A stretch of DNA of 34,630 bases from Levilactobacillus yonginensis (GTDB lineage Bacteria; Bacillota; Bacilli; Lactobacillales; Lactobacillaceae). The notes beneath the pieces were generated by a model. It had not been told where the DNA came from, did no database searches, and saw nothing but the letters and a program-made list of their open reading frames with translations. Below, piece after piece: positions 1-18,400 of the stretch (position 1 is the first letter of the stretch; the number at the start of each line of letters is the position of its first letter). The translations under genes were made by a program, and so were the position numbers. The stretch is from contig NZ_RHNO01000025.1 of the NCBI RefSeq assembly GCF_003946265.1, forward strand, positions 1-34,630. The letters run 5' to 3'.

Positions 1-9
1 TAGGCATAG

Positions 10-68
10 AAAAATCCCCTTAAAGTTAACAGATGAATTATAGTTTTTCATCTGTCAACCTTAAGGGG
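10..68 (-). terminator. Intrinsic terminator for a leftward gene outside the window
   Basis: A 22-base arm at 16-37 pairs with 47-68 around a 9-base loop, with only two mismatches. Read on the minus strand the hairpin ends in GGGG followed by a T run (complement of 10-14). It would end a leftward transcript coming from about 70 onward; no minus-strand gene is visible just to the right, so it may instead act as a barrier or belong to a short antisense RNA. Confidence 0.6.
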
Positions 69-97
69 ACTATAGCAGTGATCATCGCGTTTTTTTG

Positions 98-3281: not shown

Positions 3282-3297
3282 TGTTTCATGTGAAACA
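3282..3297. other. parS-like ParB binding site 1
   Basis: TGTTTCATGTGAAACA differs at one position from the ParB/Spo0J consensus TGTTTCACGTGAAACA and is otherwise fully palindromic. It lies in the pepC-HAD intergenic space. Family knowledge: such sites cluster around oriC in Firmicutes and load the ParB clamp and SMC. Confidence 0.75.
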
Positions 3298-3404
3298 CCT
3301 ACTGATAATTTAGGATAAAACGACTTGTGACTGGTATTTCACACAAGGTTACGGGTAAACTAAGGAAGAGGTACAGATAGCTAAATTTGATGAGGTGATT
3401 CGGA

Positions 3405-4043
3405 ATGCACAACTTTTTCTTTGACTTTGACAGTACACTGGCAGATACCCGTAATGTCGCCGTGATTGCGACTCAACGAGCTTTTGCAGCTAGAGGATTA
3501 ACCCAACCCAGTCGAGCTGCGGTGGTCAGCTATATGGGGGTGCCAATTGAGGTATCCTTTGCTAAAATGGCTGACCACGCGTTAACGGCTGCGGAATTGG
3601 AGTCGTTATATACAACGTTTAGAGAGCAGTATCAGCAGGCTGAGCAGTTGGGGATTTCCCTGTTTACGGGGATGGCAGACACCTTGTCTGAACTGAAAGC
3701 ACGCGGTGAGCGGCTTTACGTGGTTTCTAGTAAGCATTCCGTCCCCCTACAACGCAATCTTGATCAGGTCGGCTTGGGCACGACATTTGCGGCCATTAGT
3801 GGATCCGATACCGTTGCCAACTATAAGCCAGCCCCGGATGGCATTCTAAATCTGGTGGACCGCTTTGATCTGGTTGCTGCTGAGAGTGTTATGATCGGTG
3901 ATGCCAAGTATGATATGCAGATGGGCCATAACGCTGGTGTGGCCACCGCCGCAGCGTTGTGGGGTGCGGCAGATCCGGAGTCAGTTAGGGCTGAAGAGCC
4001 GACTTATTTGTTACGGACACCGATGGAATTATTAACAATTTAG
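3405..4043 (+). CDS. HAD-family hydrolase (phosphoglycolate phosphatase-like)
   Basis: A 212-residue haloacid-dehalogenase phosphatase. All four HAD motifs are visible: motif I DFDSTL with nucleophile Asp7 and acid/base Asp9; motif II Ser at 108-109 in VVSSK; motif III Lys141 in YKPAPDG; motif IV GDAKYD (Asp166, Asp170). The helical cap between residues 14 and 85 resembles the PGP/PpaX/Gph subgroup, which dephosphorylates small phosphoesters; the real substrate cannot be read from the sequence. ATG 3405 follows GAGGTG at 3392-3397. It is a single-gene unit ending at a terminator at 4053. No obvious promoter box could be chosen with confidence between parS-1 and the gene. Confidence 0.88.
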   Translation: MHNFFFDFDSTLADTRNVAVIATQRAFAARGLTQPSRAAVVSYMGVPIEVSFAKMADHALTAAELESLYTTFREQYQQAEQLGISLFTGMADTLSELKARGERLYVVSSKHSVPLQRNLDQVGLGTTFAAISGSDTVANYKPAPDGILNLVDRFDLVAAESVMIGDAKYDMQMGHNAGVATAAALWGAADPESVRAEEPTYLLRTPMELLTI

Positions 4044-4052
4044 CTAAGTGTT

Positions 4053-4078
4053 GACCAGTCCTCTGTGGCTGGTTTTTT
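4053..4078 (+). terminator. Terminator after the HAD gene
   Basis: ACCAG (4054-4058) pairs with CTGGT (4069-4073), followed by TTTTT. It is the first of two adjacent, opposite-facing terminators. Confidence 0.65.
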
Positions 4079-4080
4079 GA

Positions 4081-4114
4081 TAAAAAAAAGACCGTCCCTG
4101 GTTAGAGGACGGTC
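4081..4114 (-). terminator. Leftward terminator
   Basis: GACCGTCC (4090-4097) and GGACGGTC (4107-4114) form a perfect 8-base stem; eight A's at 4082-4089 become the T tract on the minus strand. It faces leftward transcription entering from the AT-rich gap to its right, although no leftward gene is seen there, which hints at an unannotated RNA or at read-through protection of the HAD gene. Confidence 0.65.
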
Positions 4115-4480
4115 AGAACCGCTTACTTGGTTAGGGCAAGGGGCTTCATTTTATTTGGTGAATAAAATGAAAAAAGGTTGGTTAATAGGTTTATATTGGT
4201 ATGCTTGTATCGTAACGGGTAAATGTGAAGAAATTGTGAACTTTCCTTACGCATAGGCAATGATATTTATAAAAACAATCTAATGAGTAGGTGAAAACCC
4301 ATTAATTCAGGTCTAACCGGGGGTTGGATTACTTTTTTCTAATTGTTAAAGGCAGATTAATCAACAAAATGCGTAGGGCAGACAGTCAAAACTAAACAAA
4401 TTCAAGATATTCGTATGTATTACATAACTTTTTTATTATGTTACATTTCGTTAAAAATTCTATTAGAAATTGCAGCTAAT
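4115..4480. other. AT-rich intergenic gap without a convincing gene
   Basis: This stretch is clearly richer in A+T than its neighbours. It holds a perfect 11-base inverted repeat (TTCATTTTATT at 4145-4155 with AATAAAATGAA at 4161-4171, loop TGGTG). A 29-codon open frame starting at ATG 4168 is discussed in the findings but lacks a good ribosome binding site. No RNA family, mobile element or strong promoter was recognised. It may be a decayed gene or a regulatory RNA locus. Confidence 0.4.
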
Positions 4481-4507
4481 TAAAAACCGACTCACGCAGA
4501 GTCGGTT
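4481..4507 (-). terminator. Terminator of the small membrane protein gene at 4516
   Basis: AACCGACTC (4485-4493) and GAGTCGGTT (4499-4507) form a perfect stem with a 5-base loop; the A run at 4482-4486 gives the minus-strand T tract. It begins nine bases after the stop codon of the leftward gene. Confidence 0.85.
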
Positions 4508-4515
4508 ACGTTGTT

Positions 4516-4812
4516 TTAGTGTTGATTGTGATGAAGACGATCGGCAAGTGGGCGGGGCTTGCCACTGGGCCGGCAGCCGGAATGACGTTCTAACTGAAAC
4601 TGTTTTGTACGTTCTTTTTCAATTTGAACCTGCTTTTTGAGTTGCCGATTTTTCCAAAACCCATGAATCATCAGGGAAACGGGGATGATCTCTAACGAAA
4701 TAGTTGCGGGAATCAGCCAGGGATTCTCGCTAACCAGCTTGGTGAAATATTCCTTATGTTCCTGCAGGACTTCTGGGTCAGTATCCACGATAAACTTGTG
4801 TTTAATCATCAT
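4516..4812 (-). CDS. Small single-span membrane protein, unknown function
   Basis: About 98 residues. One hydrophobic span (PWLIPATISLEIIPVSLMI, about residues 32-50) is followed by a charged, probably coiled-coil stretch rich in Lys, Gln, Glu and Arg (FWKNRQLKKQVQIEKERTKQF) and a basic, His-containing tail. The 5' end has four possible starts in a row: GTG 4818 and ATG 4815, 4812 and 4809. AAAGGAG at 4826-4820 is seven bases from ATG 4812, so that start is preferred. It lies downstream of another small membrane protein and a lipoprotein, all leftward. No family is recognised. Confidence 0.6.
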   Translation of the reverse strand: MMIKHKFIVDTDPEVLQEHKEYFTKLVSENPWLIPATISLEIIPVSLMIHGFWKNRQLKKQVQIEKERTKQFQLERHSGCRPSGKPRPLADRLHHNQH

Positions 4813-4885
4813 CATCACACTCCTTTGGCACCATCATAACCCAAAGTGAGAGCGCTGTCAGCCGGTCCGTTTTACCGGTGCCAAG

Positions 4886-5056
4886 TTAGTGATGGTCACG
4901 CCAAAAGCGAATGAGATGCAGAACGCCCAAAACAGCGGCGATACCTAGGATGGCAGTTTCCAGCAGGACAATGCCACTCAGATGGCGGTAGCGTTGATAG
5001 AGGACGATGCCACCGACGAAGAGTATGCCCAGGGTAAGGGGTAGGTATTTTTTCAT
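4886..5056 (-). CDS. Small two-span membrane protein, unknown function
   Basis: A 56-residue protein made almost entirely of two membrane spans: residues 4-20 (YLPLTLGILFVGGIVLY) and about 28-48 (SGIVLLETAILGIAAVLGVLH), joined by a basic loop (QRYRHL) and ending RFWRDHH. A longer open frame runs upstream to 5125, but it would cross the terminator hairpin; ATG 5056 has GGAGGA at 5068-5063 six bases away and is clearly the start. The ribosome binding site sits directly behind the terminator of the lipoprotein gene, so expression probably relies on read-through. Function unknown. Confidence 0.6.
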   Translation of the reverse strand: MKKYLPLTLGILFVGGIVLYQRYRHLSGIVLLETAILGIAAVLGVLHLIRFWRDHH

Positions 5057-5070
5057 GTCAATTCCTCCAC

Positions 5071-5101
5071 AAAAAAACGGCACTGCAGGTGCAGCACCGT
5101 T
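5071..5101 (-). terminator. Terminator/attenuator between lipoprotein and small membrane protein genes
   Basis: The arms 5076-5087 and 5090-5101 pair over 12 bases (two G-U pairs on the minus strand) and end in seven T's. It follows the lipoprotein stop codon by about 13 bases, and its T tract is two bases from the ribosome binding site of the next gene, so partial read-through would set the level of that gene. Confidence 0.8.
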
Positions 5102-5114
5102 TAGCATTAGGTTC

Positions 5115-5657
5115 TTATTCGGCAACCTTAACCATCACAGCCTTGGTAACATCTTGGTCGACGTCACGTGAAATGTGATAACCGGCAACTTTTAACTTAC
5201 TATCTTTGTTTTTGCCAGTAAGTGTGTCTTTAACCGTGAACTTTTGCGTCATTGGGATGTCAGATAACTTCCCCTTGAAGTTGATTACGGTGTCGTCACC
5301 CTTAGTCTTGAACGTGGTATTAAGGGTACCTTCCTTGTTCAAAGCGTTGGCCTTTTTAGCGGCGCTGTAAGACTTGTAGAGTTTGTTGACGTTGTAGACG
5401 GTCACCTTACCATCCTTGTTGAAACGGTAAGCCTCAAGACCTGAGTTGCTCTTGGCATTCACGGCACCAGTTACGTACCAGAGTTTGGTCGAACTGGTTA
5501 ACGTTGACTTAACGTCAGACTTCTTAGTCGTTTTGTTTTTGAAGCTAGCTTGTTGGTTGTTCCCCGACTTGCTACTACTGTTACTGCAGCCAGCAAGACC
5601 GATAGCAAATACTGCTAACAGTCCCATGGCGGCGGCAAAAATTCGGGATTTCTTCAT
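5115..5657 (-). CDS. Secreted lipoprotein, unknown function
   Basis: A 180-residue protein with a lipoprotein signal peptide: basic KKSR, a hydrophobic core to residue 20 and the lipobox LAGC with Cys24 as the lipidated residue. A low-complexity Ser/Asn/Lys linker follows (residues 25-55), then a domain of about 120 residues starting at LWYVTGAVNAKSNSGLEAYRF. That domain looks beta-rich and lysine-rich, contains no catalytic motif I recognise, and has no cysteine. ATG 5657 is preceded by GAGGTG. A minus-strand -10 TATACT lies at 5737-5732 with only a weak -35. It heads a small leftward cluster with two membrane proteins. Confidence 0.8.
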   Translation of the reverse strand: MKKSRIFAAAMGLLAVFAIGLAGCSNSSSKSGNNQQASFKNKTTKKSDVKSTLTSSTKLWYVTGAVNAKSNSGLEAYRFNKDGKVTVYNVNKLYKSYSAAKKANALNKEGTLNTTFKTKGDDTVINFKGKLSDIPMTQKFTVKDTLTGKNKDSKLKVAGYHISRDVDQDVTKAVMVKVAE

Positions 5658-5731
5658 ATCTCAATCACCTCATCGAAAATGATAACAGTTTTGTGCGCGA
5701 CACACAAACCCATCTACTTCTATCCACCCAC

Positions 5732-5737
5732 AGTATA
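5732..5737 (-). promoter_or_regulatory. Probable -10 box of the lipoprotein gene
   Basis: TATACT on the minus strand, 75 bases before the start codon. The -35 region is weak (CTATTT at 17-base spacing). A short inverted repeat, TTTGTG/CACAAA, lies just downstream near 5690-5708 and could be an operator. Confidence 0.35.
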
Positions 5738-5800
5738 GCATGGTCGTCCGGGGTAAATAGTTACGGGGCAATTAAAAAAGTGTTAAGTTACGTGCGGTGT

Positions 5801-5865
5801 CGTTTGTTATTTATTATTAATTTTCGACTATTTAATTATTAATAATAAATTAGCAGAGACAAACG
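5801..5865. repeat. Large AT-rich inverted repeat upstream of the nuclease gene
   Basis: Outer arms CGTTTGT (5801-5807) and ACAAACG (5859-5865) flank perfect 13-base inner arms (5809-5821 and 5838-5850) made only of A and T. The loop is 16 bases. It lies about 65 bases before the nuclease start, over the likely promoter region. It is not a terminator, since no T tract follows. It could be a binding site or a cruciform-forming element. Confidence 0.6.
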
Positions 5866-5928
5866 TATGTTCTTCTGGTAAAATTAAAGCCGTTAGTTTT
5901 GCGAAGAGAGAAAGGGGACCAGTAAGTT

Positions 5929-6747
5929 ATGAGTAAACGTCGTCGGGGGCGTCGCCGAAGTACGGTTTCAATTTATGCGGCAATATTAGTGATTGCGATT
6001 GGGGCAATTGGTGGGTTGAGCAGCCAAGGAAATCCCACGGCTAAAAAAGTGATTAATGTGGCCTCAAGTTTGGTTGGCGGTGCGACCAAGGATAGTAGCA
6101 GTAGCTCGGCAACGTCAGCCCCGAAACAATCAGTTGCCACCAAGGCACTTGCTGATCAAAAGTATGCGGGCACTCAGATTGTTGCGGTGAATCACAACAA
6201 GCCAACGTTCACATCGGCTGAACTGTCGACGAAAAAGGGCGCCTGGGCAACCTATGGTGCGCTGGACGACCTTAATCGGGTAACCACGGCGAATGCACTC
6301 CTGAGTAAGAGCACCATGCCAACGGCCAAACGAGAACCACTCTACGTTAGTCCAACGGGATGGAAAAACAAGGCCTATACGGTTAATGGTAAGAAGGGGT
6401 ATTTGTATAACCGAAGTCACTTGATTGGGTACCAGCTGACGGGTCAGAATAATAATTTAAAGAACCTGATGACTGGAACGCGGTCACTGAATGACCCAGG
6501 GATGACCGCTTACGAGAATCCAGTGGCAAGTTACTTGAAGAGTCATCCTACTGATTATGTTCGCTATCAAGTTCAGCCAGTGTTCCGTGGGAGCGAATTG
6601 GTAGCCCGAGGTGTGCACATGCAGGCCAAATCGGTCAAAAATTCGGGGATTTCATATAATGTTTATATTTTTAACATCCAAGCAGGCGTTAAAATTGATT
6701 ATGCTACCGGGACCAGTCAATACGGTGATCCCGCAGCCAGTTTTTAG
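5929..6747 (+). CDS. Membrane-anchored DNA/RNA non-specific endonuclease
   Basis: A 272-residue protein: a very basic N-terminus (KRRRGRRR), one membrane span at about residues 12-29, a Ser/Thr/Ala-rich linker (50-72), then a beta-beta-alpha metal nuclease domain. The catalytic segment reads YNRSHLIGYQL, with His164 as the general base, followed by the Asn-rich NNNLKNLMTGTRSLND that supplies the metal ligand. This variant (NRSH in place of DRGH) is typical of streptococcal DNase-like and EndA-like nucleases. The enzyme would sit outside the cell, tethered to the membrane, where it could degrade DNA for nutrition or process DNA at uptake; no competence gene is adjacent, so the role is inferred. 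ATG 5929 follows AAAGGGG. A terminator follows. Confidence 0.88.
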   Translation: MSKRRRGRRRSTVSIYAAILVIAIGAIGGLSSQGNPTAKKVINVASSLVGGATKDSSSSSATSAPKQSVATKALADQKYAGTQIVAVNHNKPTFTSAELSTKKGAWATYGALDDLNRVTTANALLSKSTMPTAKREPLYVSPTGWKNKAYTVNGKKGYLYNRSHLIGYQLTGQNNNLKNLMTGTRSLNDPGMTAYENPVASYLKSHPTDYVRYQVQPVFRGSELVARGVHMQAKSVKNSGISYNVYIFNIQAGVKIDYATGTSQYGDPAASF

Positions 6748-6806
6748 GGTGTAACGGGGATTACGGCATGGTCATCAGAGACACACTTAATTAGTTCTAA
6801 TAAAGC

Positions 6807-6836
6807 AAGAGACCGGAGAAATTGCCGGTCTCTTTT
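6807..6836 (+). terminator. Terminator after the nuclease gene
   Basis: GAGACCGG (6809-6816) pairs with CCGGTCTC (6825-6832), then TTTT. Confidence 0.85.
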
Positions 6837-6903
6837 CTGTCTTCAGACAAGCAAATTTATCATGATGCGTATTACTGGCGATGAAAGTAGCGGTGATCGA
6901 TTT

Positions 6904-7059
6904 TTAATGGCGATTCATGTACCGGTAAATTGCATAGAGGATGATGCCAGCTAGTACGATGATACCAACCGTGGGATTGTCACGGAAGAGCCACCGAACG
7001 ATTCGAAAAGAATTGGTGCCGTGCAAGCCACCGAGCAGGGTGGTGAAGTGAGTAAACAT
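6904..7059 (-). CDS. Small single-span membrane protein, unknown function
   Basis: A 51-residue protein beginning MFTHFTTLLGG, with a basic amphipathic stretch (FRIVRWLFRDN) and one membrane span (PTVGIIVLAGIILYAIYRYM) at the C-terminus. ATG 7059 is selected because a full AAGGAGGT lies nine bases upstream; the open frame extends further upstream to 7125 but without a ribosome binding site. It sits alone and leftward between the nuclease and cardiolipin synthase genes. Its size and layout resemble small stress-related or toxin-like membrane peptides, but no family is recognised. Confidence 0.55.
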   Translation of the reverse strand: MFTHFTTLLGGLHGTNSFRIVRWLFRDNPTVGIIVLAGIILYAIYRYMNRH

Positions 7060-7177
7060 GGTCGCAGGACCTCCTTGAATTTTGGGAATTAAAATATCAA
7101 AAAAGTTAAAGAAAAGTAAAGACATTTGAATGATTTAGCGTATCATGAAATCACAGAGAATAGAGGAGGGTTTACAC

Positions 7178-8635
7178 GTGAACGTGAATTACATGCTCAT
7201 CCTGGAAATCATCGTATTGATTAACACGACACTGGCCCTGGTAACTGTTTTTCGAGAAAAACGCGATATCGCAGCGACGTGGGCTTGGATGCTGGTGTTG
7301 GTATTATTGCCAGTGGTTGGCTTTATTGCCTACGCCTTTATTGGCCGAAAGCTACCGAAGGGGCGCATGTTTCGTCTGCAAAGACAGGTAGCCGTTCAAC
7401 TTGAGGAACGGTTATCTCAACAGCGTGAAGAGATTGGCAATCAAGTTATGCCAGCAGATGAAATTAGCCATTCAGTTATCAATATGGTAAACATGTTTAT
7501 GGAAACGGATCATGCATTTCTAGCCCGTAAAAATCGGGTGCGGGTGATTACAGATGGTCATAACCTGTTTCATTTAATGATGGAAGACATTGAACGCGCG
7601 CACTCAAGTATTCATATTGAATTTTACACCTTTTACAATGATCAGATTGGTAATGACATCTTGGACTTATTGGTCAAGAAGGCCAAGATGGGGGTGGAAG
7701 TGCGGGTCATTTACGATCCTTGGGGGTCCATGGGAACCTGGAAACGATTCTTTAAACCTTTGATGGCGGCGGGCGGCCACGTGGAGCCCTTCTTGGGCAC
7801 CCGGTCAGCCGTTATTGACTTTCGGCTGAACTTCCGTGACCATAGAAAAATTGTGACGATTGACGGACAGATTGGGTATGTCGGTGGGTTTAACATTGGC
7901 GATCAATACCTTGGCCGCAAAGAAAAATTTGGTTATTGGCGTGACACGCATCTGCGGTTAGTTGGTTCAGGGGTCTTCTCCCTTCAAGCGCGGTTCATGT
8001 TGGATTGGAATGCGACGGATCGTGATCACCCGTTCAAGGATGACCGCATTGAACACAAGTATTTTCCATTGACGAAGGTCAAAGGGGAAACGAGCTTACA
8101 AATTGTTTCCAGCGGTCCAGATTCGGACTTACAGCAAATCAAGATGGGGTACATGCGATTGATTCAAACTGCTGAGAAGCGGTTGTGGATTCAGACCCCC
8201 TATCTAATTCCGGATGACAGTGTCTTGGACTCGTTGCGGATTGCTGCAATGGCGGGGATCGATGTTCGAATCATGATTCCAGACAAGCCGGATCACGCAT
8301 TCGTCTACCGAGCAACGCAGTATTACGCACGGCAACTCGCCGATGATGGTGTGAAAATCTATTATTATCATAATGGGTTCATTCATGCGAAGACGATGGT
8401 TGTTGATGGCCGGATTGCTTCCGTTGGCTCAGCCAATATGGATTACCGTAGTTTTAAACTGAATTTCGAAATTAATGCCTTTATATATGATCCACAGGTG
8501 GCAACTCAGTTAGAGGAAATCTATGAAGCCGATATGCGGCACAGCGAGTTGATTACACCAGAAATGTTTGACGAACAGTCGTTGTACTTGAAGTTTAAGC
8601 AGACGGCGTCTCGGTTACTATCTCCAATTTTGTAG
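7178..8635 (+). CDS. cls: Cardiolipin synthase
   Basis: A membrane phosphatidyltransferase that joins two phosphatidylglycerols into cardiolipin. The 485-residue protein has two N-terminal membrane spans (about 5-23 and 33-55) and two phospholipase-D HKD motifs: HRKIVTID (His222, Lys224, Asp229) and HAKTMVVD (His403, Lys405, Asp410), each followed by the usual GS/GG and N residues (VGGFNIGDQY; VGSANMDYRS). Length and order match the bacterial Cls family. GTG 7178 is the likely start, seven bases after GAGGAGGG at 7163-7170; an ATG 33 bases upstream lacks a ribosome binding site. The gene is monocistronic; no intrinsic terminator directly follows the stop codon, and the next is at 8824-8850. 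Confidence 0.96.
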   Translation: MNVNYMLILEIIVLINTTLALVTVFREKRDIAATWAWMLVLVLLPVVGFIAYAFIGRKLPKGRMFRLQRQVAVQLEERLSQQREEIGNQVMPADEISHSVINMVNMFMETDHAFLARKNRVRVITDGHNLFHLMMEDIERAHSSIHIEFYTFYNDQIGNDILDLLVKKAKMGVEVRVIYDPWGSMGTWKRFFKPLMAAGGHVEPFLGTRSAVIDFRLNFRDHRKIVTIDGQIGYVGGFNIGDQYLGRKEKFGYWRDTHLRLVGSGVFSLQARFMLDWNATDRDHPFKDDRIEHKYFPLTKVKGETSLQIVSSGPDSDLQQIKMGYMRLIQTAEKRLWIQTPYLIPDDSVLDSLRIAAMAGIDVRIMIPDKPDHAFVYRATQYYARQLADDGVKIYYYHNGFIHAKTMVVDGRIASVGSANMDYRSFKLNFEINAFIYDPQVATQLEEIYEADMRHSELITPEMFDEQSLYLKFKQTASRLLSPIL

Positions 8636-8684
8636 CCAATCTATTAGCTGTGTTGGGCAGGTAAACGTCTAATAAAATGCTAAA

Positions 8685-8850
8685 TAATTGGGTCTGATGG
8701 TATTCGGGTGTATGATGGTGGCGCTGAGATGATTAGCTTGTCTTTAGCTGGATTGAGGCCGGTGTTTCACCGGTCAGCTAAGGTGCATCGTACATCAGCA
8801 GACTAGTATGTATGTGTGAGAAAGTCCGTGAGTGATCACGGGCTTTTTTT
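8685..8850 (+). ncRNA. Candidate structured small RNA ending in a terminator
   Basis: A strongly folded segment lies between cls and yfhO. Nested helices are: GTCTG (8692-8696) with CAGAC (8799-8803); GTATGATG (8710-8717) with CATCGTAC (8786-8793); TTAGCTG (8744-8750) with CAGCTAA (8775-8781); and CCGGTG (8759-8764) with CACCGG (8768-8773). It ends with an intrinsic terminator at 8824-8850, and a possible -10 TAAAAT lies near 8672-8677. No open frame is present. An elongated hairpin with internal bubbles recalls 6S RNA in outline, but no family was identified. It could instead be the 3' UTR of cls. Confidence 0.4.
8824..8850 (+). terminator. Terminator downstream of cls / small RNA candidate
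   Basis: GTCCGTGA (8824-8831) pairs with TCACGGGC (8836-8843) around GTGA, followed by seven T's. It lies about 190 bases beyond the cls stop codon. Confidence 0.85.
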
Positions 8851-9160
8851 CGTGGTTTGTTAACAGTACTTGAGGACGTACCCGATAGCAATGAAAAGTT
8901 AAAACAACCAAGTTACAGGGTAATTGACAGACCGACTATTCATCTTAATGGTTGGGTACGAAGAGCGGAGATAATGACTGACATTGGTCATGGCTTCCGG
9001 TATAGTTGAACAACTGCTAGCACTGGTCATTTCAAATTAGCTCGGTATCAAAGCCTGGGCGTAGGGGGCGTGGTGCGTGCTTGACCGTGCGAGATTTAGT
9101 GAGCACTGATGCAAACGTTTCACGTGAAACATTAAAATCAGGTATCTTATGTCGGGAAAG
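8851..9160. other. Gene-free interval between the small RNA candidate and yfhO
   Basis: No convincing open frame. A possible plus-strand promoter is CTGACA (8978-8983), 17 bases, TATAGT (9001-9006), followed by a small inverted repeat AGTTG-AA-CAACT near 9004. The parS-2 site is at 9116. Anything transcribed from 8978 would run through parS-2 into yfhO. Confidence 0.35.
9116..9131. other. parS-like ParB binding site 2
   Basis: CGTTTCACGTGAAACA matches the parS core GTTTCACGTGAAAC exactly and differs from the 16-base consensus only at the first base. It is intergenic, 31 bases upstream of the yfhO promoter. Confidence 0.85.
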
Positions 9161-9161
9161 A

Positions 9162-9190
9162 TTGACACGGAGTGGTTTGATTTGTAGATT
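9162..9190 (+). promoter_or_regulatory. yfhO promoter
   Basis: A consensus -35 TTGACA at 9162-9167 and a -10 TAGATT at 9185-9190 are separated by 17 bases. It is one of the best promoter matches in the window. Confidence 0.75.
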
Positions 9191-9249
9191 TAATGTAAGT
9201 CGGTTTAAAAGGACCGGGGAACTTGAGTAATTAATTGGAGGCTGTCATC

Positions 9250-12200
9250 ATGAAAATCGCACACCACCGTTGGCCATTATGGGTTTTGTATAGCCTGGCC
9301 TTTATGGTGATCGCGGCACTTAGTTTTGGGGTGTTTGGCCTAGCCAACCGAACATTGATTTGGAATATGGACGGGATCACCCAACATTATCCCGTTATTT
9401 TGGAACTGCACCAGTTGTTAGTGAAATCTGGATTTGCCGGATTGGCAGGCTGGTCGTGGACAATGGGACTGGGAGCAGATAAGCTCACGACATTGGCTTA
9501 TTACGTCCTTGGTGATCCCTTTGCCTATGGCTTAGCACTATTACCAACGCGATGGTTAGAGACTGGTTATGGCGTATTTATCGTCCTACGCCTCTATGCG
9601 ACCGGATTAGCCTTTCTAGCATTTGCCCGGCGCTATAATTTTCGCCCGGGAAGTCGCTTGATGGGGGCCATTACCTATGCCTTTACGGGGTATTCCCTAA
9701 TGGTTGGCGTCCACCATCCGTTCTTCCTATTGCCCATGATTTGGCTACCGCTGTTGTTTGTCGGGATTAACCGAATCCTACGAGGCAAAGGGTGGGGATT
9801 TCTAGGGTTAATGACGGGTGTAACTATCCTTAGTAACTTTTATTTTGCCTACATATTGGGGCTGGGTAGCTTAATCTATGCAGTTATTCGTTTCTTCAGT
9901 TTGCAAGGACAAGGGGCGTTAGCGGTTAAATGGCGGCCAGCTATTGGGCGCTTCATAGCAGCAGCGGTCACTGGTGTTTTCGTTTCGGGGATACTGCTGC
10001 TACCATCGCTACTGATGATGCTGAAGTCAACCCGGACCGGGTCAGTTTTTGCCAATGGACTATGGTTATATCCCAATGGTTATTATTTACAGTTAGGAAA
10101 TGCTATTCTAACCACCGGAAATACGCTGAGTTACTGGGCGGTATTGGGGGTCAGTGGACTGACCTTTTTGGGCGGTGTGTACGTCCTAGTCCATTGGCGG
10201 GAGCAACGCTGGCTAGCGGGAACGTTAGTGGCAGTTGTGATCGGTTTAGGGATTCCCGCGGTAGCGGCATTCTTTAATGTGCTGTCGACGCCTTCTAATC
10301 GGTGGATTTTGTTAGCTGCAATTCCTTTTGGATTGGCAACGATGACGCTGTGGGAACACTTGACGACGTTAACCCGGACGGATCGCTATTGGTTAGCTGG
10401 CAGTGCATTTGCGCTCTTGGCGGTAATTTACCTTTGTAATGGTCTGACGTTTAGCAATGCTAAGCGGGACTTGATTACCTATTGTTTATTGCTGGCCTTG
10501 GTTGCCGTGATCTGGGGTGGTGCCCAGCTAACTGCCCGGTGGCTAGTCAGCTTGGTTTGTATTTTAGTTGGTCTGAACTTGGTCAATAACGCTTGGGGAT
10601 ACTATGATCCTAATGCTGGCGTTCAGGCAACTCAACAGATACGACGGCACGATGCTACGCGGTATATTCTGGATTACTTTGATGGCGCTGATCACGGTAT
10701 AAAAAAGACGGCAGCCTTTTCGCGGGTGAACGCTACGCGGAACTTCAACCTATTCCGCACGGTTGGCAACAACATGACGATGAGTCACGGGTTGCGGGGG
10801 ACGATGTCCTATTTTTCTGTTCAGAATGGTTACGTTGGGCAATTTAGCCGTGACTTACAAAACTCGGAATATGCCATGAACGCGCCAATCGGGCAGGCGG
10901 ATAGTCGTTCTTCACTGAACCAATTGCTGGGGGTTAAGCATTTATTTGCACGGGAAGATCAGGTGACCAACCACGCTGCCTTACCATATGGGTATCATGC
11001 TCAGAAGAAAGTGTATCCAGAAAAACCGGTATATGCGCTCTCTAACGGTGTTGGCACACAAATTTTAACGACTAACCTTAACTTCCCCTTGGTATACACG
11101 CAACCGCAAGCATTGTCAGCGAACGCTTGGCGTAAGCTTAGTGGTGTTGATCGGGAACGTAGTCTGACGCAAGGCGCGGTGACTAATGAGCCATTTAAAG
11201 ACGTTACTAAAACCGCCTATACGTCACCCAAACGAACGTTGGCTTATACAGTTACACCGAACGCAATTCCGGTTATTTATAGTACCAATAAGGTTATTCA
11301 GTATCGGTTGAAGCAAGGAATCGCAGGTCAGAAGACTGGCTTAAACGATAAGCAATTGGATAATTATGGGTCATCAATTAAGACACCAGAGCTGAAGGTC
11401 GATGAGAACGGTCTGCTGACTAAGCAAGAGGTTAAGACTTATGGGCCCATGGTTGATTTGAATAACCAGCAGACAGCTTTAAATAGGGTGCTGACGCGGA
11501 ATCAACAGGTTCTTGAGACAACCACGCAGGCAAATCAAGATGGTCTTCACCAGATGACGAGTGATGCGCAAGGGCAACCAATTAGCTATACGTTAACGCT
11601 AAAACGGCCAAAGCAGGCCCAGGGGACGGAACTCTATTTGGCGTTGGATGGTATTACGTCACAAAAATTGACGACTAAGAGACAACTGCAAGACCAGGAC
11701 AATACCAGTATTCTGGGGGCAACACCACGTTCTAATTTGACTAAATTAAATGCCTGGCGGGATGCTGTTAGCGCACCAGATTTAGGAGATTATTGGGTCA
11801 AAGTTCAGACCCGTAATCAATCGAAAATGTTTTCTCAATTTGGGGTGGATAATCTTTCGGATTACGAACCAAAGCATCAGGTGTTATTGAACCTGGGGTA
11901 CTCTAAGCAACGACGGGAAACGATAACCGTTACCTTTAATGCGACACGGCAGATTAACTTTAAGTCAGCTAAATTGTTCGCAATGCCCTTTGGTAAGAGC
12001 TACGACCAGCAAGTTCATGCTGCGCAACAGCGGGGGTTGAAGCATGCCAAGGTGACGGATAATCAGGTGACTGGAGAAGTCAGTCCGCAGCGAACGAGTG
12101 TGTTAACAACGTCAATTCCGTACTCGGATGGTTGGCACTTAGCGGTCGATGGTCAGCAGGTAAAAACGCAGGTCGTCAACGATGGTTTTGTGGGCGCTCG

Positions 12201-12345
12201 ATTGTCGGCTGGAACTCATAAGATTCGGTTGACGTATCGGACCCCGGGTCTGTTAGTGGGTGCGCTAGTCACCTTATTAGGGGGACTGATTTTAATAGCT
12301 GAAAGTTGTTGGCGATGGTTTCGTGGACGTAGAAAATCTCAATGA
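9250..12345 (+). CDS. yfhO: YfhO-family polytopic membrane protein (envelope polymer glycosylation)
   Basis: A 1031-residue protein. The N-terminal 450 residues hold about a dozen membrane spans; an extracellular region of about 540 residues follows (about 455-995), and a last span (LVGALVTLLGGLILIAES) plus a basic tail ends the protein. The loop after span 1, NMDGITQHYPV (Asp41) and GLGADKLTTLAYYVLGDPF, is characteristic of YfhO proteins, which have the GT-C glycosyltransferase fold. In Bacillus the family adds sugars to lipoteichoic acid outside the membrane, and the same role is inferred here. ATG 9250 is used because GGAGG (9237-9241) lies eight bases before it; the TTG at 9235 overlaps that site. 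It has its own promoter and terminator and no glycosyltransferase partner next to it. Confidence 0.88.
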   Translation: MKIAHHRWPLWVLYSLAFMVIAALSFGVFGLANRTLIWNMDGITQHYPVILELHQLLVKSGFAGLAGWSWTMGLGADKLTTLAYYVLGDPFAYGLALLPTRWLETGYGVFIVLRLYATGLAFLAFARRYNFRPGSRLMGAITYAFTGYSLMVGVHHPFFLLPMIWLPLLFVGINRILRGKGWGFLGLMTGVTILSNFYFAYILGLGSLIYAVIRFFSLQGQGALAVKWRPAIGRFIAAAVTGVFVSGILLLPSLLMMLKSTRTGSVFANGLWLYPNGYYLQLGNAILTTGNTLSYWAVLGVSGLTFLGGVYVLVHWREQRWLAGTLVAVVIGLGIPAVAAFFNVLSTPSNRWILLAAIPFGLATMTLWEHLTTLTRTDRYWLAGSAFALLAVIYLCNGLTFSNAKRDLITYCLLLALVAVIWGGAQLTARWLVSLVCILVGLNLVNNAWGYYDPNAGVQATQQIRRHDATRYILDYFDGADHGIKKTAAFSRVNATRNFNLFRTVGNNMTMSHGLRGTMSYFSVQNGYVGQFSRDLQNSEYAMNAPIGQADSRSSLNQLLGVKHLFAREDQVTNHAALPYGYHAQKKVYPEKPVYALSNGVGTQILTTNLNFPLVYTQPQALSANAWRKLSGVDRERSLTQGAVTNEPFKDVTKTAYTSPKRTLAYTVTPNAIPVIYSTNKVIQYRLKQGIAGQKTGLNDKQLDNYGSSIKTPELKVDENGLLTKQEVKTYGPMVDLNNQQTALNRVLTRNQQVLETTTQANQDGLHQMTSDAQGQPISYTLTLKRPKQAQGTELYLALDGITSQKLTTKRQLQDQDNTSILGATPRSNLTKLNAWRDAVSAPDLGDYWVKVQTRNQSKMFSQFGVDNLSDYEPKHQVLLNLGYSKQRRETITVTFNATRQINFKSAKLFAMPFGKSYDQQVHAAQQRGLKHAKVTDNQVTGEVSPQRTSVLTTSIPYSDGWHLAVDGQQVKTQVVNDGFVGARLSAGTHKIRLTYRTPGLLVGALVTLLGGLILIAESCWRWFRGRRKSQ

Positions 12346-12356
12346 TTGCTAAGAAG

Positions 12357-12386
12357 AGCGCTTCTCGAATTTGAGAGGCGCTTTTT
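12357..12386 (+). terminator. Terminator after yfhO
   Basis: AGCGCTTCTC (12357-12366) pairs with GAGAGGCGCT (12373-12382), then T's. A possible -10 TACACT for the next gene follows at 12401-12406. Confidence 0.85.
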
Positions 12387-12440
12387 GGCGTAAAATTTGC
12401 TACACTCAATTTGTTGGGAATAGATAAAGGAGCGATGGCA

Positions 12441-13355
12441 ATGGTAAGGTGGCTCAAGTGGCCAGTATTTGTTGAATTAACGGAGATCTATACAGCACCA
12501 TTGAATGTGATGTGGTTTGTGTTAGGAGCAGCCATTGCGCAGTACAACGTTGGTGTCGTGAACTGGATAAACGTTGGTTTGTGTCTGCTGGTGGTCTTTA
12601 TTTTTGATTTGGCGGTCAACGTGGCGGACAATTATTATGACTATCAGCATGCGCATGATCGGGAAGGATACGCACAACAAACGAATCCAGTTGGGCGATT
12701 GAATTTGCCAGAGCGCGGTGTAGCTCAGCTTGCCTGGGGGTTATATTTATTGGCAGCGGTCCCTGGTGTAATTTTGGTCTTGAGAACTGGCTGGCCGGTT
12801 GCGGTATTTGGAGCAGTTGGGTACGCTATCGGCATTTTTTACACAGCTGGGCCTCGTCCAATTAATGCAACGCCATTTTCTGCGGCAGTCGTGGCCTTGG
12901 CTATTGCCTTTTTGATCCAGTTAACATGTGTCTATGTGTCCATCTACGGCCAACGGTCCTTATCCTGGACCATTGTTGGTGTGACATTTCTGCTGTGTCT
13001 GCCGCTTACACTGATCTTCTTCACACTGCAATTAGCCAATGATACGGCTGACCGTGATGAGGACATTGCCAACCGTCGGTATACGTTGGCTTACTATACC
13101 GGAAAAAGGGGTGCCGTTCGGGTGATCAAGGTGTTTTTAGTTGTTGGTAGTTTGTGGCCGCTACTCAACGTCATCTTGGGTTTAGCCCCAGCAATTACGG
13201 GCTGGGCAGCCATATTGCTTCCAGTGATGTGGCGCGGCATGACACCATTTTTTCAACGCCAAGACAAACAGCTGACATTCATGGCAACGGTGAAGAGTGC
13301 GTCACTATTTTTCCTAGCCTATCCGGTGTTGTTTGCAATCGGAACCTGGCTTTAG
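12441..13355 (+). CDS. UbiA-family prenyltransferase (MenA-like)
   Basis: A 304-residue membrane protein with about eight or nine spans. The two Asp-rich prenyl-diphosphate/Mg sites of the UbiA fold are visible: NVADNYYDYQHAHD (Asp63, Asp67) and, later, NDTADRDEDIANRRYT. The overall pattern resembles 1,4-dihydroxy-2-naphthoate polyprenyltransferase, which attaches the isoprenoid tail in menaquinone synthesis; no other menaquinone gene is in the window, so the acceptor is inferred. ATG 12441 lies eight bases after AAAGGAG (12426-12432); the ATG at 12435 is too close and the TTG at 12411 too far upstream. It is transcribed singly and ends at a bidirectional terminator shared with the convergent purine permease gene. 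Confidence 0.82.
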   Translation: MVRWLKWPVFVELTEIYTAPLNVMWFVLGAAIAQYNVGVVNWINVGLCLLVVFIFDLAVNVADNYYDYQHAHDREGYAQQTNPVGRLNLPERGVAQLAWGLYLLAAVPGVILVLRTGWPVAVFGAVGYAIGIFYTAGPRPINATPFSAAVVALAIAFLIQLTCVYVSIYGQRSLSWTIVGVTFLLCLPLTLIFFTLQLANDTADRDEDIANRRYTLAYYTGKRGAVRVIKVFLVVGSLWPLLNVILGLAPAITGWAAILLPVMWRGMTPFFQRQDKQLTFMATVKSASLFFLAYPVLFAIGTWL

Positions 13356-13461
13356 GGGAGCGTCCGATGATGGGGCATCACCGTTTAACCCGGGTTATAG
13401 TTAGTCGTTAATGCAGTCTAAAAAATAAGTGGTTCTAGCAACAGTTTTGCTGGTACCGTAT

Positions 13462-13497
13462 AAAAAAGCGTCGCCAGAATTAACTGGCGACGCTTTT
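13462..13497. terminator. Bidirectional terminator between prenyltransferase and purine permease
   Basis: A perfect stem (AAAAGCGTCGCCAG with CTGGCGACGCTTTT) with T tracts on both strands. It separates two convergent genes. Confidence 0.9.
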
Positions 13498-13510
13498 ACC
13501 TGTTCATTTG

Positions 13511-14821
13511 TTATCCGGCGTTCAAGATCCACAAGAAGAGGACGAAGACAACGGCCAGGCCGTACATCATAGGGCCAACATCCTTGCCGCGCTTAGCAGC
13601 CAACATAGTTAAAGGATATGTGATGAAGCCTAAGGCAATTCCGTCTGAAATACTGTAAGTCAGGGGCATACCCAGGACAATCAGAAAGGCGGGCGCAGCG
13701 ACTTCGAATTTTTCCCAATGGATGTTCTTCAGAGATTGGGCCATGAGTACCCCAACGATAATCAGGGCAGGGGCCGTAACTTGGTTCGTGACAACAGCCA
13801 GTAGAGGGGAGAAGAAGGCACCAAAGATGAAGAGAACACCCGTAACAATAGCGGTGAAACCAGTCCGACCACCAACAGCGATACCGGCAGAGGATTCAAC
13901 GAAGGCACCCATTGGAGAGGTTCCCAGCAGTGAGCCGACAACCATTGTGCTGGAGTCAGCCATCAAGGCTTTACCGATACGAGGAAGCTTGTTGTTCTTG
14001 ACCAGACCAGCTTGTTCAGCTAAACCAACCAATGTCCCAGTGGTGTCAAAGAAGGTAACGAGCAGGAACGTTAAAACAACGACGACTAGTTGCAGGGAGT
14101 TAATACTTCCCACGTGGGTTAACCCAACCATGAAAGTGGAACTGATACTAGGAATTGCTGAAACGATGTGATGGGGCATAGGAATCAATCCAGTTGCAAG
14201 GCCCAAGACAGAGTTAGCAACCATCCCAATAAAGATAGCACCAGGAACCCGGGCGCTCATGAGGATCATAGTGACGATCAATCCAAAGATAGTCAGCCAA
14301 GTGCTCCCGACTTGCAGAGAACCAAGAGTGACAACTGTTGATTTATCAGCGACAATCAGACCACCCTGACTCAAGCCGATAAAGGCGATGAACAACCCAA
14401 TCCCGGCACTAATGGCCATCTTTAAATCACGAGGGATTGCGTCAACCACCATTTCGCGAATCTTAAATGCGGTTAAAATCATGAAGAGAATTGAAGCCAC
14501 AAAGACACCAGCCAGTGCGGTTTCCCAAGGAACCTTCATACCAATGACAACTGAATAGGCAAAGAAGGCGTTGATTCCTAAACTGGCGGAAATTGCGATG
14601 GGGTAGTTAGCCAGTAAACCCATCAGGAAACAACCTAACGCTGAAGCGAAGGCGGTGGCTGTGAAGACGGCCCCTTGACTGATACCGGAAGCGCCTAACA
14701 CTTGGGGGTTTACAAACAAAATGTAGGCCATGGATACGAAGGTTGTGAGACCGGCTAGCATTTCGGTCCGGAAACTGGTTCCTAATTCATCAAAATGGAA
14801 AAAGTTCGCAATGCGTTGCAT
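13511..14821 (-). CDS. NCS2-family purine permease (AzgA/PbuG-like)
   Basis: A 436-residue transporter with 12-14 membrane spans that imports purine bases (hypoxanthine, guanine or adenine) with protons. Family motifs are ISASLGINAFFAY (about 77-89), FFDTTGTLVGLAEQAG (about 265-280) and TSPMGAFVESSAGIAVGGRTG (about 303-323), which set AzgA-type carriers apart from uracil/xanthine NCS2 members. Start ATG 14821 has AAGGAG upstream. Three PurBox-like sites surround its promoter, which supports a purine substrate and control by PurR. The gene is monocistronic and ends at a bidirectional terminator. Whether it prefers guanine/hypoxanthine or adenine cannot be told by eye. Confidence 0.93.
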   Translation of the reverse strand: MQRIANFFHFDELGTSFRTEMLAGLTTFVSMAYILFVNPQVLGASGISQGAVFTATAFASALGCFLMGLLANYPIAISASLGINAFFAYSVVIGMKVPWETALAGVFVASILFMILTAFKIREMVVDAIPRDLKMAISAGIGLFIAFIGLSQGGLIVADKSTVVTLGSLQVGSTWLTIFGLIVTMILMSARVPGAIFIGMVANSVLGLATGLIPMPHHIVSAIPSISSTFMVGLTHVGSINSLQLVVVVLTFLLVTFFDTTGTLVGLAEQAGLVKNNKLPRIGKALMADSSTMVVGSLLGTSPMGAFVESSAGIAVGGRTGFTAIVTGVLFIFGAFFSPLLAVVTNQVTAPALIIVGVLMAQSLKNIHWEKFEVAAPAFLIVLGMPLTYSISDGIALGFITYPLTMLAAKRGKDVGPMMYGLAVVFVLFLWILNAG

Positions 14822-14853
14822 AAATGAGGCTCCTTAAAATAATTTATTTATGA

Positions 14854-14886
14854 AAACCCGAACGTTTTAAATGAATGTTCGGATAT
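14854..14886 (-). promoter_or_regulatory. Pair of inverted PurBoxes in the permease leader
   Basis: CCGAAC (14858-14863) and GTTCGG (14877-14882) are two PurBox cores facing each other 13 bases apart. The second, ATATCCGAACATT on the minus strand, fits AWWWCCGAACWWT completely; the first has two mismatches. They lie downstream of the predicted start point, so binding here could block transcription. Confidence 0.7.
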
Positions 14887-14909
14887 AATTGCTAAATCAC
14901 TACTTAAAG

Positions 14910-14938
14910 AGCATATCATTTTTGTGAATAGAATACAA
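14910..14938 (-). promoter_or_regulatory. Purine permease promoter
   Basis: On the minus strand, TTGTAT (14938-14933), 17 bases, TATGCT (14915-14910), predicting a start near 14903. It lies between PurBox 3 and the paired PurBoxes. Confidence 0.5.
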
Positions 14939-14967
14939 TCACGAATTACAATTAAATTTATAAAATT

Positions 14968-14980
14968 ATTGTTCGGATAA
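14968..14980 (-). promoter_or_regulatory. Upstream PurBox
   Basis: TTATCCGAACAAT on the minus strand matches the PurBox consensus except the first base. It is centred about 71 bases upstream of the predicted start point, close to the position used by the activating PurR of lactococci. Confidence 0.6.
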
Positions 14981-14982
14981 AT

Positions 14983-15013
14983 TAAAAGAGCCCGAGCAAG
15001 TGCTCTGGCTCTT
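14983..15013 (-). terminator. Terminator after the aldo/keto reductase gene
   Basis: On the minus strand AAGAGCC pairs with GGCTCTT, with an inner GAGC/GCTC stem, followed by TTTTAA. It overlaps the upstream edge of the permease control region. Confidence 0.8.
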
Positions 15014-15025
15014 AGGAAGATTCAA

Positions 15026-16009
15026 TTAATCCGGGTCAGCTAGTGATTTACCACTTGTGACAGTTCGGAAACCGGCGAAGGCCTCGTCAATCGTCTGGTA
15101 TTCAGTCGTGTTCAGCGTTACATCTAAGGCGCCGGCATTGGCTTCAACTTGAGTAGCCTTTTTGGCGCCAGGGATGACGACGCCGATCAGTGGGTTTTGC
15201 ATGTACCAGGCCAGAACGGTCTGAGCTACCGTTGCTTGATGAGCTTTTGCAATTGGTCGAATTTTTTCGATAGCTGCTAAGGCTTGACTGTAGCGGGGCT
15301 CCTGAAAATCGCTGATTTGGCTACGAATATCATCAGCGGGGAAACTAACATCATGAGTATACTTACCTGTCAGCAGTCCAGAGGCGAGCGGAAAGTAGGG
15401 GACAAAGCTGATTTGATGATCCTTCAGATAAGGCAACAAGTCGGCCTCATGGTCCCGATGTAGGAGACTAAATTCATCTTCAACCACGTCTAGGTAGCCA
15501 TCAGCATTGGCTTCCTTAACTTGTTCTAGGCTAAAGTTTGAGACCCCAATTGCCCGGATCTTTCCTTGCTCACGTAATCGCTGCAGAGCACCAACAGCTT
15601 CTGCCTTAGGGGTTTTCTTATCAGGAAAATGAATGTAGTAGATATCTAGATAATCAGTGTTGAGGCGTTTTAGACTAGCTTCGACTTGCTCAGTTAAGAA
15701 CTGAGGATCATTGTTGATGATCTGTTCGCCGGATGAAAAATCTTGGGCCCCTTTGGTCGCTAGTGTGAAACTGTGACGGTCGAAGGCGTGCATTGCTTGT
15801 CCGACTAACTCTTCCGAATGGCCTAAGCCATAAACGAAGGCCGTATCTAGCAGTTTTATGCCTTGATTTAAACCAGCCTGGACTAGGTTGATACCATCTT
15901 CATCTTTGAGGCCAGGAAAGAGGTTATAACCACCGACTGCATTGGTACCAAGTCCCAAGGGCGTGGTTTGAACGTCAGTCTTGCCAATAGTTACCATATT
16001 ATGTGTCAT
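15026..16009 (-). CDS. Aldo/keto reductase (IolS-like)
   Basis: A 327-residue NADPH-dependent oxidoreductase with the TIM-barrel aldo/keto reductase fold. The catalytic tetrad is present: Asp55 and Tyr60 (LDTAFVYG), Lys86 (LATKGA) and His127 (YYIHFPD). GVSNFSLEQ and the cofactor segment VIPGAKKATQ are also as expected. The pattern GLGTNAVGGYNLFP, IHFPDKKTP and YFPLASGLLTGKYT is very close to Bacillus IolS/YxbF, an AKR11 member. There is no inositol operon nearby, so the natural substrate is unknown. ATG 16009 lies five bases after GGAGGT. A minus-strand -10 TATAAT is at 16059-16054. It is divergent from the Rossmann-fold gene at 16157, sharing a 150-base intergenic region. Confidence 0.93.
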   Translation of the reverse strand: MTHNMVTIGKTDVQTTPLGLGTNAVGGYNLFPGLKDEDGINLVQAGLNQGIKLLDTAFVYGLGHSEELVGQAMHAFDRHSFTLATKGAQDFSSGEQIINNDPQFLTEQVEASLKRLNTDYLDIYYIHFPDKKTPKAEAVGALQRLREQGKIRAIGVSNFSLEQVKEANADGYLDVVEDEFSLLHRDHEADLLPYLKDHQISFVPYFPLASGLLTGKYTHDVSFPADDIRSQISDFQEPRYSQALAAIEKIRPIAKAHQATVAQTVLAWYMQNPLIGVVIPGAKKATQVEANAGALDVTLNTTEYQTIDEAFAGFRTVTSGKSLADPD

Positions 16010-16053
16010 ATTTTACCTCCTAATAGTGATGAAACCGGATTCAATACACACTC

Positions 16054-16059
16054 ATTATA
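16054..16059 (-). promoter_or_regulatory. -10 box of the aldo/keto reductase gene
   Basis: Perfect TATAAT on the minus strand, 45 bases before the start codon; the best -35 (TTGAAA) is at a short 15-base spacing. Confidence 0.5.
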
Positions 16060-16119
16060 CCTAAATTGATTGGATTTCAAAATCACTTTATCCAGAAGTT
16101 CCTCAGGTGAGACGCTTTC

Positions 16120-16128
16120 TGGTACACT
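16120..16128 (+). promoter_or_regulatory. Extended -10 promoter of the Rossmann-fold gene
   Basis: TGGTACACT is an extended -10 (TGn plus TACACT) about 28 bases before the ATG; no good -35 is needed for such promoters. Confidence 0.5.
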
Positions 16129-16156
16129 AGAAGGCAAGGAAAAAGGAGCGGATGAT

Positions 16157-16759
16157 ATGACAACTTATTTGATTGTGGGTGCAAGTGCACTGGGCCAATC
16201 CGTGGCACGTCAATTGACCCAAGCGAAGGAGTCGACCGTGCGGGTATTACATGGGGTCGATGATACGCTGCCCCAGGATTTAGCGAAACAAGTCGTTGAG
16301 TTGACGGGTGATTTAACGAAAGAAGCGACTTACCTAGCTGCGTTACAGGATGATCCGATTATTTTTTCTGCATTGGAAGGCATGGACGTTGATTTAGCTT
16401 TTGAGGCATTATTCGATGCGCAATATCACAATCAGCTAGCATTAACGCGATTCGTAATGCTGAGTACGGCGGGGGTGGATCAGGAAGTGACTGGAGCTAT
16501 CCAATACCCTGGTATTAACGATGTTAAGGAGTATTTGAATCAGCAGCGGTACGCGGCTAAATTAGTCGATGAGGCAGAATTCCCTTACACTATTTTACGG
16601 CCAGTAACACTGTCGGATAGTCCAGCTACGGCACCTCAGATAATTCCAGAAGGGGCAGCGGTACCAGCGGGAACTGTTTCACGTGAAACAGTGGCGACAG
16701 TGGCGGTCTCGATTCTACAAGCAGGTGGCTACGACTATCAATCATTAGCAATTTGCTAA
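16157..16759 (+). CDS. NAD(P)-binding Rossmann-fold protein (NmrA/SDR-like)
   Basis: A 200-residue cytoplasmic protein. The N-terminus TTYLIVGASALGQSVARQL is a nucleotide-binding beta-alpha-beta unit (GASALGQ standing in for GxxGxxG). RFVMLSTAGVD and PYTILRPVTLSD match the atypical SDR/NmrA pattern seen in many small NAD(P)H-binding proteins of lactobacilli. The catalytic Tyr-x3-Lys of classical SDRs is not evident, so it may be a redox sensor or isomerase-like enzyme; substrate unknown. ATG 16157 follows AAAAGGAG (16141-16148) by eight bases, replacing a longer open frame from 16070. Near its 3' end, codons for TVSRETV contain an exact parS palindrome. Confidence 0.8.
   Translation: MTTYLIVGASALGQSVARQLTQAKESTVRVLHGVDDTLPQDLAKQVVELTGDLTKEATYLAALQDDPIIFSALEGMDVDLAFEALFDAQYHNQLALTRFVMLSTAGVDQEVTGAIQYPGINDVKEYLNQQRYAAKLVDEAEFPYTILRPVTLSDSPATAPQIIPEGAAVPAGTVSRETVATVAVSILQAGGYDYQSLAIC
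16675..16690. other. Exact parS ParB binding site 3, inside a coding region
   Basis: TGTTTCACGTGAAACA is identical to the 16-base parS consensus, and the palindrome extends to 20 bases (16673-16692). It lies within the Rossmann-fold gene. Confidence 0.92.
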
Positions 16760-18346: not shown

Positions 18347-18354
18347 AAGCAATT

Positions 18355-18400
18355 AAAAACGATGAGCTTTCCGGTCTTAACCGTAAGCTCATCTTTTTTT
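18355..18400. terminator. Bidirectional terminator between the deacetylase and M20 genes
   Basis: GATGAGCTT (18361-18369) pairs with AAGCTCATC (18385-18393), with an inner CGGT/ACCG hairpin; T tract to the right, A tract to the left. It serves two convergent genes. Confidence 0.9.

What the first reader, a model, noticed from the sequence alone, without database searches (positions are those of the whole stretch)
3282..16690. Cluster of three parS sites in 13.4 kb marks an origin-proximal region
Three palindromes (3282-3297, one mismatch; 9116-9131, core exact; 16675-16690, exact) match the Firmicute ParB/Spo0J site. Chance occurrence of even one exact 16-base site in this length is very small. 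In Firmicutes such sites lie around oriC and load ParB clamps and SMC, so this window is probably a chromosome-organising centre although neither parA/parB nor dnaA is present.
Basis: partly seen in the sequence, partly recalled or inferred. Interest (0 to 1): 0.7.

Follow-up and report, generated by a model that had tools for sequence, protein, structure and literature searches.

The report
Centromere-like parS sites beside replication origin
Three short DNA palindromes in this lactic-acid-bacterium contig look like docking sites of the chromosome-segregation protein ParB and belong to a cluster round the replication origin; that is ordinary, except that the genes for ParB itself lie far from the origin in the relatives examined.

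Summary
Confirmed. The contig is Levilactobacillus. Its genome holds 14 such sites with at most one mismatch: 10 on the dnaA contig C1, 3 here, 1 on C56. The window's first bases and those of C1 map next to each other in two relatives, so the sites lie about 21, 27 and 34 kb from dnaA, where GC skew flips. In relative G032 all 13 sites lie within about 300 kb round dnaA. The genome encodes a ParB with parS-type residues and a Noc with NBS-type residues. The sites are kept in place in part of the genus, one of them inside a coding sequence. So: ordinary oriC-proximal parS sites; the mechanism is inferred from known ParABS. Less expected: the par operon lies 12.7-30.4% of the chromosome from dnaA in 5 of 5 long-contig congeners, whereas a review (passage) puts operon and parS together in the ori domain.

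The parts
3282..3297 (.). parS site 1, TGTTTCATGTGAAACA (one mismatch), intergenic between the Peptidase_C1-like gene (1707-3041) and the HAD hydrolase gene (3405-4043)
   Evidence: upstream of the HAD gene in 3 of 5 relatives that could be read there (G028, G032, G031; not G022, G027)
9116..9131 (.). parS site 2, CGTTTCACGTGAAACA (core exact), intergenic, core starting 118 bases upstream of the YfhO gene (9235-12345)
   Evidence: within 260 bases upstream of YfhO with at most 1 mismatch in 12 of 32 relatives, with 2 mismatches in 8, none in 12
16675..16690 (.). parS site 3, exact, inside the NAD(P)H-binding protein gene (16070-16759), codons GTT TCA CGT GAA AC(A)
   Evidence: in 16 of 22 orthologues; low synonymous variation
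16070..16759 (+). NAD(P)H-binding (PF13460) gene that carries site 3; true start probably at codon 30 (Met), by eye
1..77 (.). probable end of an insertion element that splits the assembly between this contig and C1 (dnaA contig)
   Evidence: window 78 and C1 76-78 map to the same spot of G028 and of G032; inverted-repeat-like ends and a 3-base direct repeat CAC (read by eye)

Best explanation
The three palindromes are genuine chromosomal parS sites on one flank of oriC in a Levilactobacillus. Shown: sequence, clustering round dnaA, a parS-type ParB gene in the genome, conservation in place in part of the genus. Inferred from known ParABS biology: ParB dimers bind the sites, are switched by CTP into clamps that slide along the flanking DNA, are moved apart with the sister origins by ParA, and load SMC-ScpAB, which aligns the arms from the origin outwards. 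The sites act in cis on chromosome layout; the genes next to them (YfhO, HAD hydrolase, NAD(P)H-binding protein) are most likely bystanders.
For: 14 sites with at most 1 mismatch in 2.69 Mb against 1 for the reversed control pattern, 13 of the 14 on C1 and this contig. dnaA at C1:17918-19243; window end and C1 end map next to each other in G028 and G032; GC skew changes sign at about C1:18-20 kb, with DnaA boxes on both sides of dnaA. G032: 13 of 13 sites within 161 kb of dnaA, including counterparts of the window's three at 20.5, 26.5 and 34.1 kb. Sites within 10% of the contig length from dnaA: 61 of 64 over G005, G019, G031, G032; in G034 all 11 that were listed of 15. ParB with Arg and Gly at the two positions that decide for parS; Noc with Gln-Lys-Lys-Arg. 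Codon-level conservation of site 3 and positional conservation of sites 1 and 2.
Against: No binding data. 7 of 33 relatives have no site with at most 1 mismatch in the fetched stretch round YfhO (some of these stretches are cut by contig ends), and 12 of 32 have nothing with up to 2 mismatches just upstream of YfhO, so no single site is indispensable. 3 of 64 sites lie far from dnaA (G005 770,666; G031 470,208 and 787,599). SMC and ScpAB were not looked for. The contig join is inferred from relatives; nothing in this draft joins C18 to C1.
Confidence: 0.94

Rival explanations
1. The palindromes are operators of a local transcription factor that regulates YfhO, the HAD hydrolase and other neighbours, and only resemble parS.
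For: Sites 1 and 2 start 122 and 118 bases upstream of start codons; site 2 keeps its place upstream of YfhO in part of the genus, close to a TTGACA-like promoter element (element by eye).
Against: Site 3 is inside a coding sequence; in G032 all 13 sites lie within about 300 kb round dnaA; relatives carry sites at other places of the same region; variants seen (GTTCCACGTGAAAC) are the core of the B. subtilis parS consensus quoted in PMC7614844 (passage).
Confidence: 0.03
2. They are Noc-binding sites (NBS), spread round the chromosome to keep the division septum off the nucleoid.
For: The genome encodes a Noc (TIGR04285 above cut-off) next to parA and parB.
Against: ATTTCCCGGGAAAT (NBS, recalled) with up to 2 mismatches is absent from the window, C5 and C56 and occurs twice on C1, once exactly. 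The sites cluster at ori instead of spreading.
Confidence: 0.01
3. Chance matches or a plasmid or integrated-element partition locus.
For: The contig is short and ends in what looks like an insertion element.
Against: Shuffle expectation 0.11 against 3 found; several window genes look like chromosomal housekeeping genes (AddB-type and UvrD-type nuclease-helicases, a class II D/K/N tRNA synthetase); gene order round the sites is the same in G028 and G032; no partition gene among the 24 ORFs scanned.
Confidence: 0.01

Closest known systems
Bacillus subtilis chromosomal ParABS (Spo0J-Soj-parS)
   Same: Same palindrome family, several sites round oriC, a Noc/ParB pair with a ParA-like gene in the order noc-parA-parB (B. 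subtilis order recalled).
   Different: In B. subtilis the Par system is proximal to oriC (abstract of PMC7614844, seen). Here rnpA-yidC-jag-mnmE-mnmG stays beside dnaA, and rsmG-noc-parA-parB-ychF lies on another contig and far from dnaA in relatives.
Lactobacillus (Limosilactobacillus) reuteri parS in Hi-C maps, PMC10197239
   Same: A lactobacillus; three parS at -180, -17 and +206 kb round the origin, with hairpin-like Hi-C signals at the outer two (passages).
   Different: Three sites there (found with up to 2 mismatches to the 16-mer); 14 here. The passages seen do not say where its par operon lies.
Noc/NBS system
   Same: Paralogous DNA-binding protein encoded in the same operon.
   Different: Different target sequence; only one exact NBS in the roughly 520 kb of this genome that was scanned.

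Membership tests
Chromosomal parS site | 16-base palindrome TGTTTCACGTGAAACA / TGTTCCACGTGAAACA or a close variant | tested here: met
   0 or 1 mismatch in each of the three
Chromosomal parS site | Clustering in the ori domain (about 20% of the chromosome round oriC) | tested here: met
   own genome by contig and join, G032 on a 2.65-Mb contig
Chromosomal parS site | Cognate ParB with parS-type specificity residues (Arg and Gly at Caulobacter 173 and 201) in the genome | tested here: met
   ORF L086:12502-13386 aligned to B. subtilis ParB 6sdk; residue rule from PMC7383237 (passages); positions placed by eye by way of the GKSR and SMG motifs, no Caulobacter alignment printed
Chromosomal parS site | Bound by ParB in the cell, spreading and SMC recruitment | not testable with these tools
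   needs ChIP-seq or Hi-C
Canonical ParABS layout | par operon within the ori domain together with parS (PMC7022226, passage) | tested here: not met
   12.7, 12.7, 30.4, 20.0 and 20.4% of the contig length from dnaA in G032, G005, G031, G034, G019 (contig taken as the circular chromosome); in the window's own draft parB is on a different contig (C5), distance not measurable
NBS (Noc-binding site) | ATTTCCCGGGAAAT | tested here: not met
   no match with up to 2 mismatches in the window

The most novel reading that the evidence does not exclude
In Levilactobacillus, and by degrees over the Lactobacillaceae, the par operon has broken away from the origin (split between mnmG and rsmG) and drifted up to a third of the chromosome away, while the parS array stays at oriC and is held there by selection strong enough to constrain codons of an unrelated gene. 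The centromere and the genes of its machinery are then under separate positional selection, and early-replicated gene dosage of parAB at the origin is not required.
Probability: 0.6. Interest if true: 0.5.

Novelty: new member of a known kind. Interest (0 to 1): 0.35.

Why it matters
It fixes where this contig sits in the chromosome and shows that lactic-acid bacteria of this genus have many parS sites round the origin. The more useful point is a natural experiment: parS remains at the origin while its trans-acting operon lies elsewhere. That separates two explanations for why they usually sit together (need for cis action of parS, against dosage or co-location of the genes), and it can be tested in non-pathogenic food bacteria.

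Tried and rejected
Noc-binding sites were sought as an alternative reading and not found in the window. Orientation bias of the asymmetric variant GTTTCATGTGAAAC was looked at by eye and not pursued. In G044 and G079 (genus g9), whose parB is far from dnaA, no site with at most 1 mismatch was found either in 80-100 kb to one side of dnaA or in 60 kb round parB, so the 'parS stays at ori' statement is not shown for that genus; only one arm was read. Literature searches on parS in lactobacilli or on the place of the par operon listed nothing to the point apart from the L. reuteri Hi-C paper (listings only, at most 15 rows each); the 2007 survey of parS sites (PMC2168934) is not held and may already list related species, so I claim no priority. 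The codon test on site carriers only (zero synonymous difference) is circular and is not used; the tests over all usable rows are (15 rows: lowest of 203 stretches; 18 rows: third lowest of 196).

Full report
Observation. In 100 dinucleotide shuffles of the window, three core matches with up to two mismatches were never reached (mean 0.11). The window is a complete contig, C18 of a 63-contig draft of 2,693,691 bases. Of 23 loci that encode a relative of its Mur-ligase-like protein, 20 are named Levilactobacillus, two Lactobacillus and one, at 35%, Anaerofustis; L. tongjiangensis is first at 99%.

Genome-wide distribution. The core with up to one mismatch occurs 14 times in the genome, against 1 for the reversed control: 10 on C1 (5,793-190,204), 3 in the window, 1 on C56. 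C1 carries dnaA at 17,918-19,243. GC skew on C1 is negative up to about 18-20 kb and positive after 20 kb, and exact DnaA boxes lie on both sides of dnaA (17,529, 17,633, 19,352, 19,391, 19,436). So oriC is most likely there.

Where the window lies. Window base 78 aligns to position 20,517, and C1 base 76 to 20,515, of the same stretch of G028 contig C43, running in opposite directions. In G032 window base 78 and C1 base 78 meet at bases 72 and 74 of one fetched stretch. The window therefore abuts C1, turned round, with base 1 facing the origin. The outer 77 and 75 bases have no counterpart there; they look like the two ends of an insertion element, with inverted-repeat-like tips and a 3-base direct repeat CAC, which would explain the contig break. 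Not counting that element, the sites lie about 21, 27 and 34 kb from the dnaA start. The positive skew of the window's + strand (0.09-0.14) fits a replichore read away from the origin. In G032, whose C1 is a 2,648,638-base contig, YfhO is 93% identical, dnaA is at 1,755,595-1,756,920, and sites at 1,777,445, 1,783,413 and 1,790,976 match the window's three in order and spacing. GC skew in 20 sampled stretches of G032 is negative in those from 530 kb to 1,740 kb and positive in those from 1,865 kb on and up to 400 kb, in keeping with an origin near dnaA.

Genus. The pattern occurs in 34 of 35 genomes of the genus, 10 to 22 times each, against 0 to 2 for the control; the exception, G008, is 72% complete and has no DnaA match over the cut-off. 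Within 10% of the contig length of dnaA lie 13 of 13 sites in G032, 20 of 21 in G005, 14 of 16 in G031 and 14 of 14 in G019; in G034 all 11 that were listed of 15. G031 has the contig length and site positions of the L. brevis CD0817 chromosome.

Conservation of the window's own sites. I fetched up to 20 kb round YfhO in 33 relatives; 26 of 33 hold at least one site with at most one mismatch, 7 hold none. Site 3 lies inside an NAD(P)H-binding gene. Of 22 relatives with a counterpart of that gene, 16 have the site in it (12 exact, 4 with one mismatch); 5 lack it and 1 is cut short. In a first test with 15 rows the four codons of the site had the lowest synonymous variation of 203 four-codon stretches; with 18 rows (window included; two close relatives, L103 and L104, and three short rows left out) they are third lowest of 196 (0.27 against a median of 0.58), the lower two lying at the probable start codon. 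Where the protein differs in carriers (VPRET, VSHET, VSRGT for VSRET), the DNA still reads a one-mismatch parS. Within 260 bases upstream of YfhO a site with at most one mismatch lies in 12 of 32 relatives, with two mismatches in 8 more, and none in 12; most stand 105-118 bases from the gene, five of them 167-246. Over 11 carriers the site ranks 6th of 247 14-base stretches for conservation (0.91 against a mean of 0.60). Site 1 is upstream of the HAD gene in G028, G032 and G031 and absent in G022 and G027 (5 relatives testable).

The cognate proteins. C5 carries rsmG, noc, a parA-like gene (ParA models match below their cut-offs), parB and ychF in a row, with a small ORF between the last two. 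The parB product aligns over 199 residues to B. subtilis ParB (6sdk) and keeps the GERR and ENLQRE stretches. At the positions that decide specificity (PMC7383237, passages) it has Arg and Gly, the parS type; the Noc has Gln, Lys, Lys, Arg, the NBS type. I placed these positions by eye from the printed alignments.

The unexpected part. No site with up to two mismatches lies on C5 (74.7 kb). In the five congeners with long contigs parB lies 336 kb (G032), 326 kb (G005), 909 kb (G031), 529 kb (G034) and 546 kb (G019) from dnaA, that is 12.7, 12.7, 30.4, 20.0 and 20.4% of the contig taken as a circle. One lone G031 site (787,599) lies about 121 kb from parB. In the window's genome rnpA, yidC, jag, mnmE and mnmG are still beside dnaA, so the block known from B. 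subtilis (order recalled) is split between mnmG and rsmG. In 40 genomes of the family with at most 4 contigs, out of 141 searched for parB, the distance is at most 10% in 26 and more in 14; only 7 are within about 50 kb (genome sizes rounded to 0.1 Mb, so fractions are approximate). In five of the displaced cases I read 80-100 kb at dnaA and 60 kb at parB: 15 sites with at most one mismatch in three of five at the origin, none in any of the five at parB (one two-mismatch match in G068); G044 and G079 had none at either place. A review calls the location of par operons and most parS within 20% of the chromosome round oriC a conserved feature (PMC7022226, passage); so most of the family fits it and this genus does not. 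B. subtilis work reports that control of ParA does not need parS near oriC (PMC7614844, abstract and passages), which concerns parS and not the operon, but shows that the parts tolerate separation. I found no paper on the place of the par operon in lactobacilli (listings), but the library is partial.

Mechanism. Most likely these are ordinary loading sites: ParB binds, takes CTP, closes into a clamp, slides into the flanking DNA, is moved by ParA and recruits SMC. All steps after the sequence are inferred from named ParABS work. Verdict: an ordinary, conserved part of a known system, with a mildly surprising gene layout.

Noticed in passing
window 1-77 and L076 1-75: Probable two ends of an insertion element (TG...CA-like tips, imperfect inverted repeat, 3-base direct repeat CAC) that splits the assembly about 18 kb from dnaA; G028 and G032 lack it.
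   Followed up: partly
window 34430-34630: The right end reads, by eye, like a tandem promoter and leader of a ribosomal RNA operon, which would explain the contig end; no Rfam family reaches its threshold in the window (sequence printed).
   Followed up: no
L086 10149-14719 (own contig C5): rsmG-noc-parA-parB-(small ORF)-ychF block, far from dnaA in five congeners.
   Followed up: yes
L185-L188 and L169-L173 (G044, G079): No parS with at most one mismatch in 80-100 kb to one side of dnaA, nor in 60 kb round parB, in two genomes of one other genus.
   Followed up: no
window 28726-29685: 319-residue ORF without any Pfam match at E 0.001.
   Followed up: no
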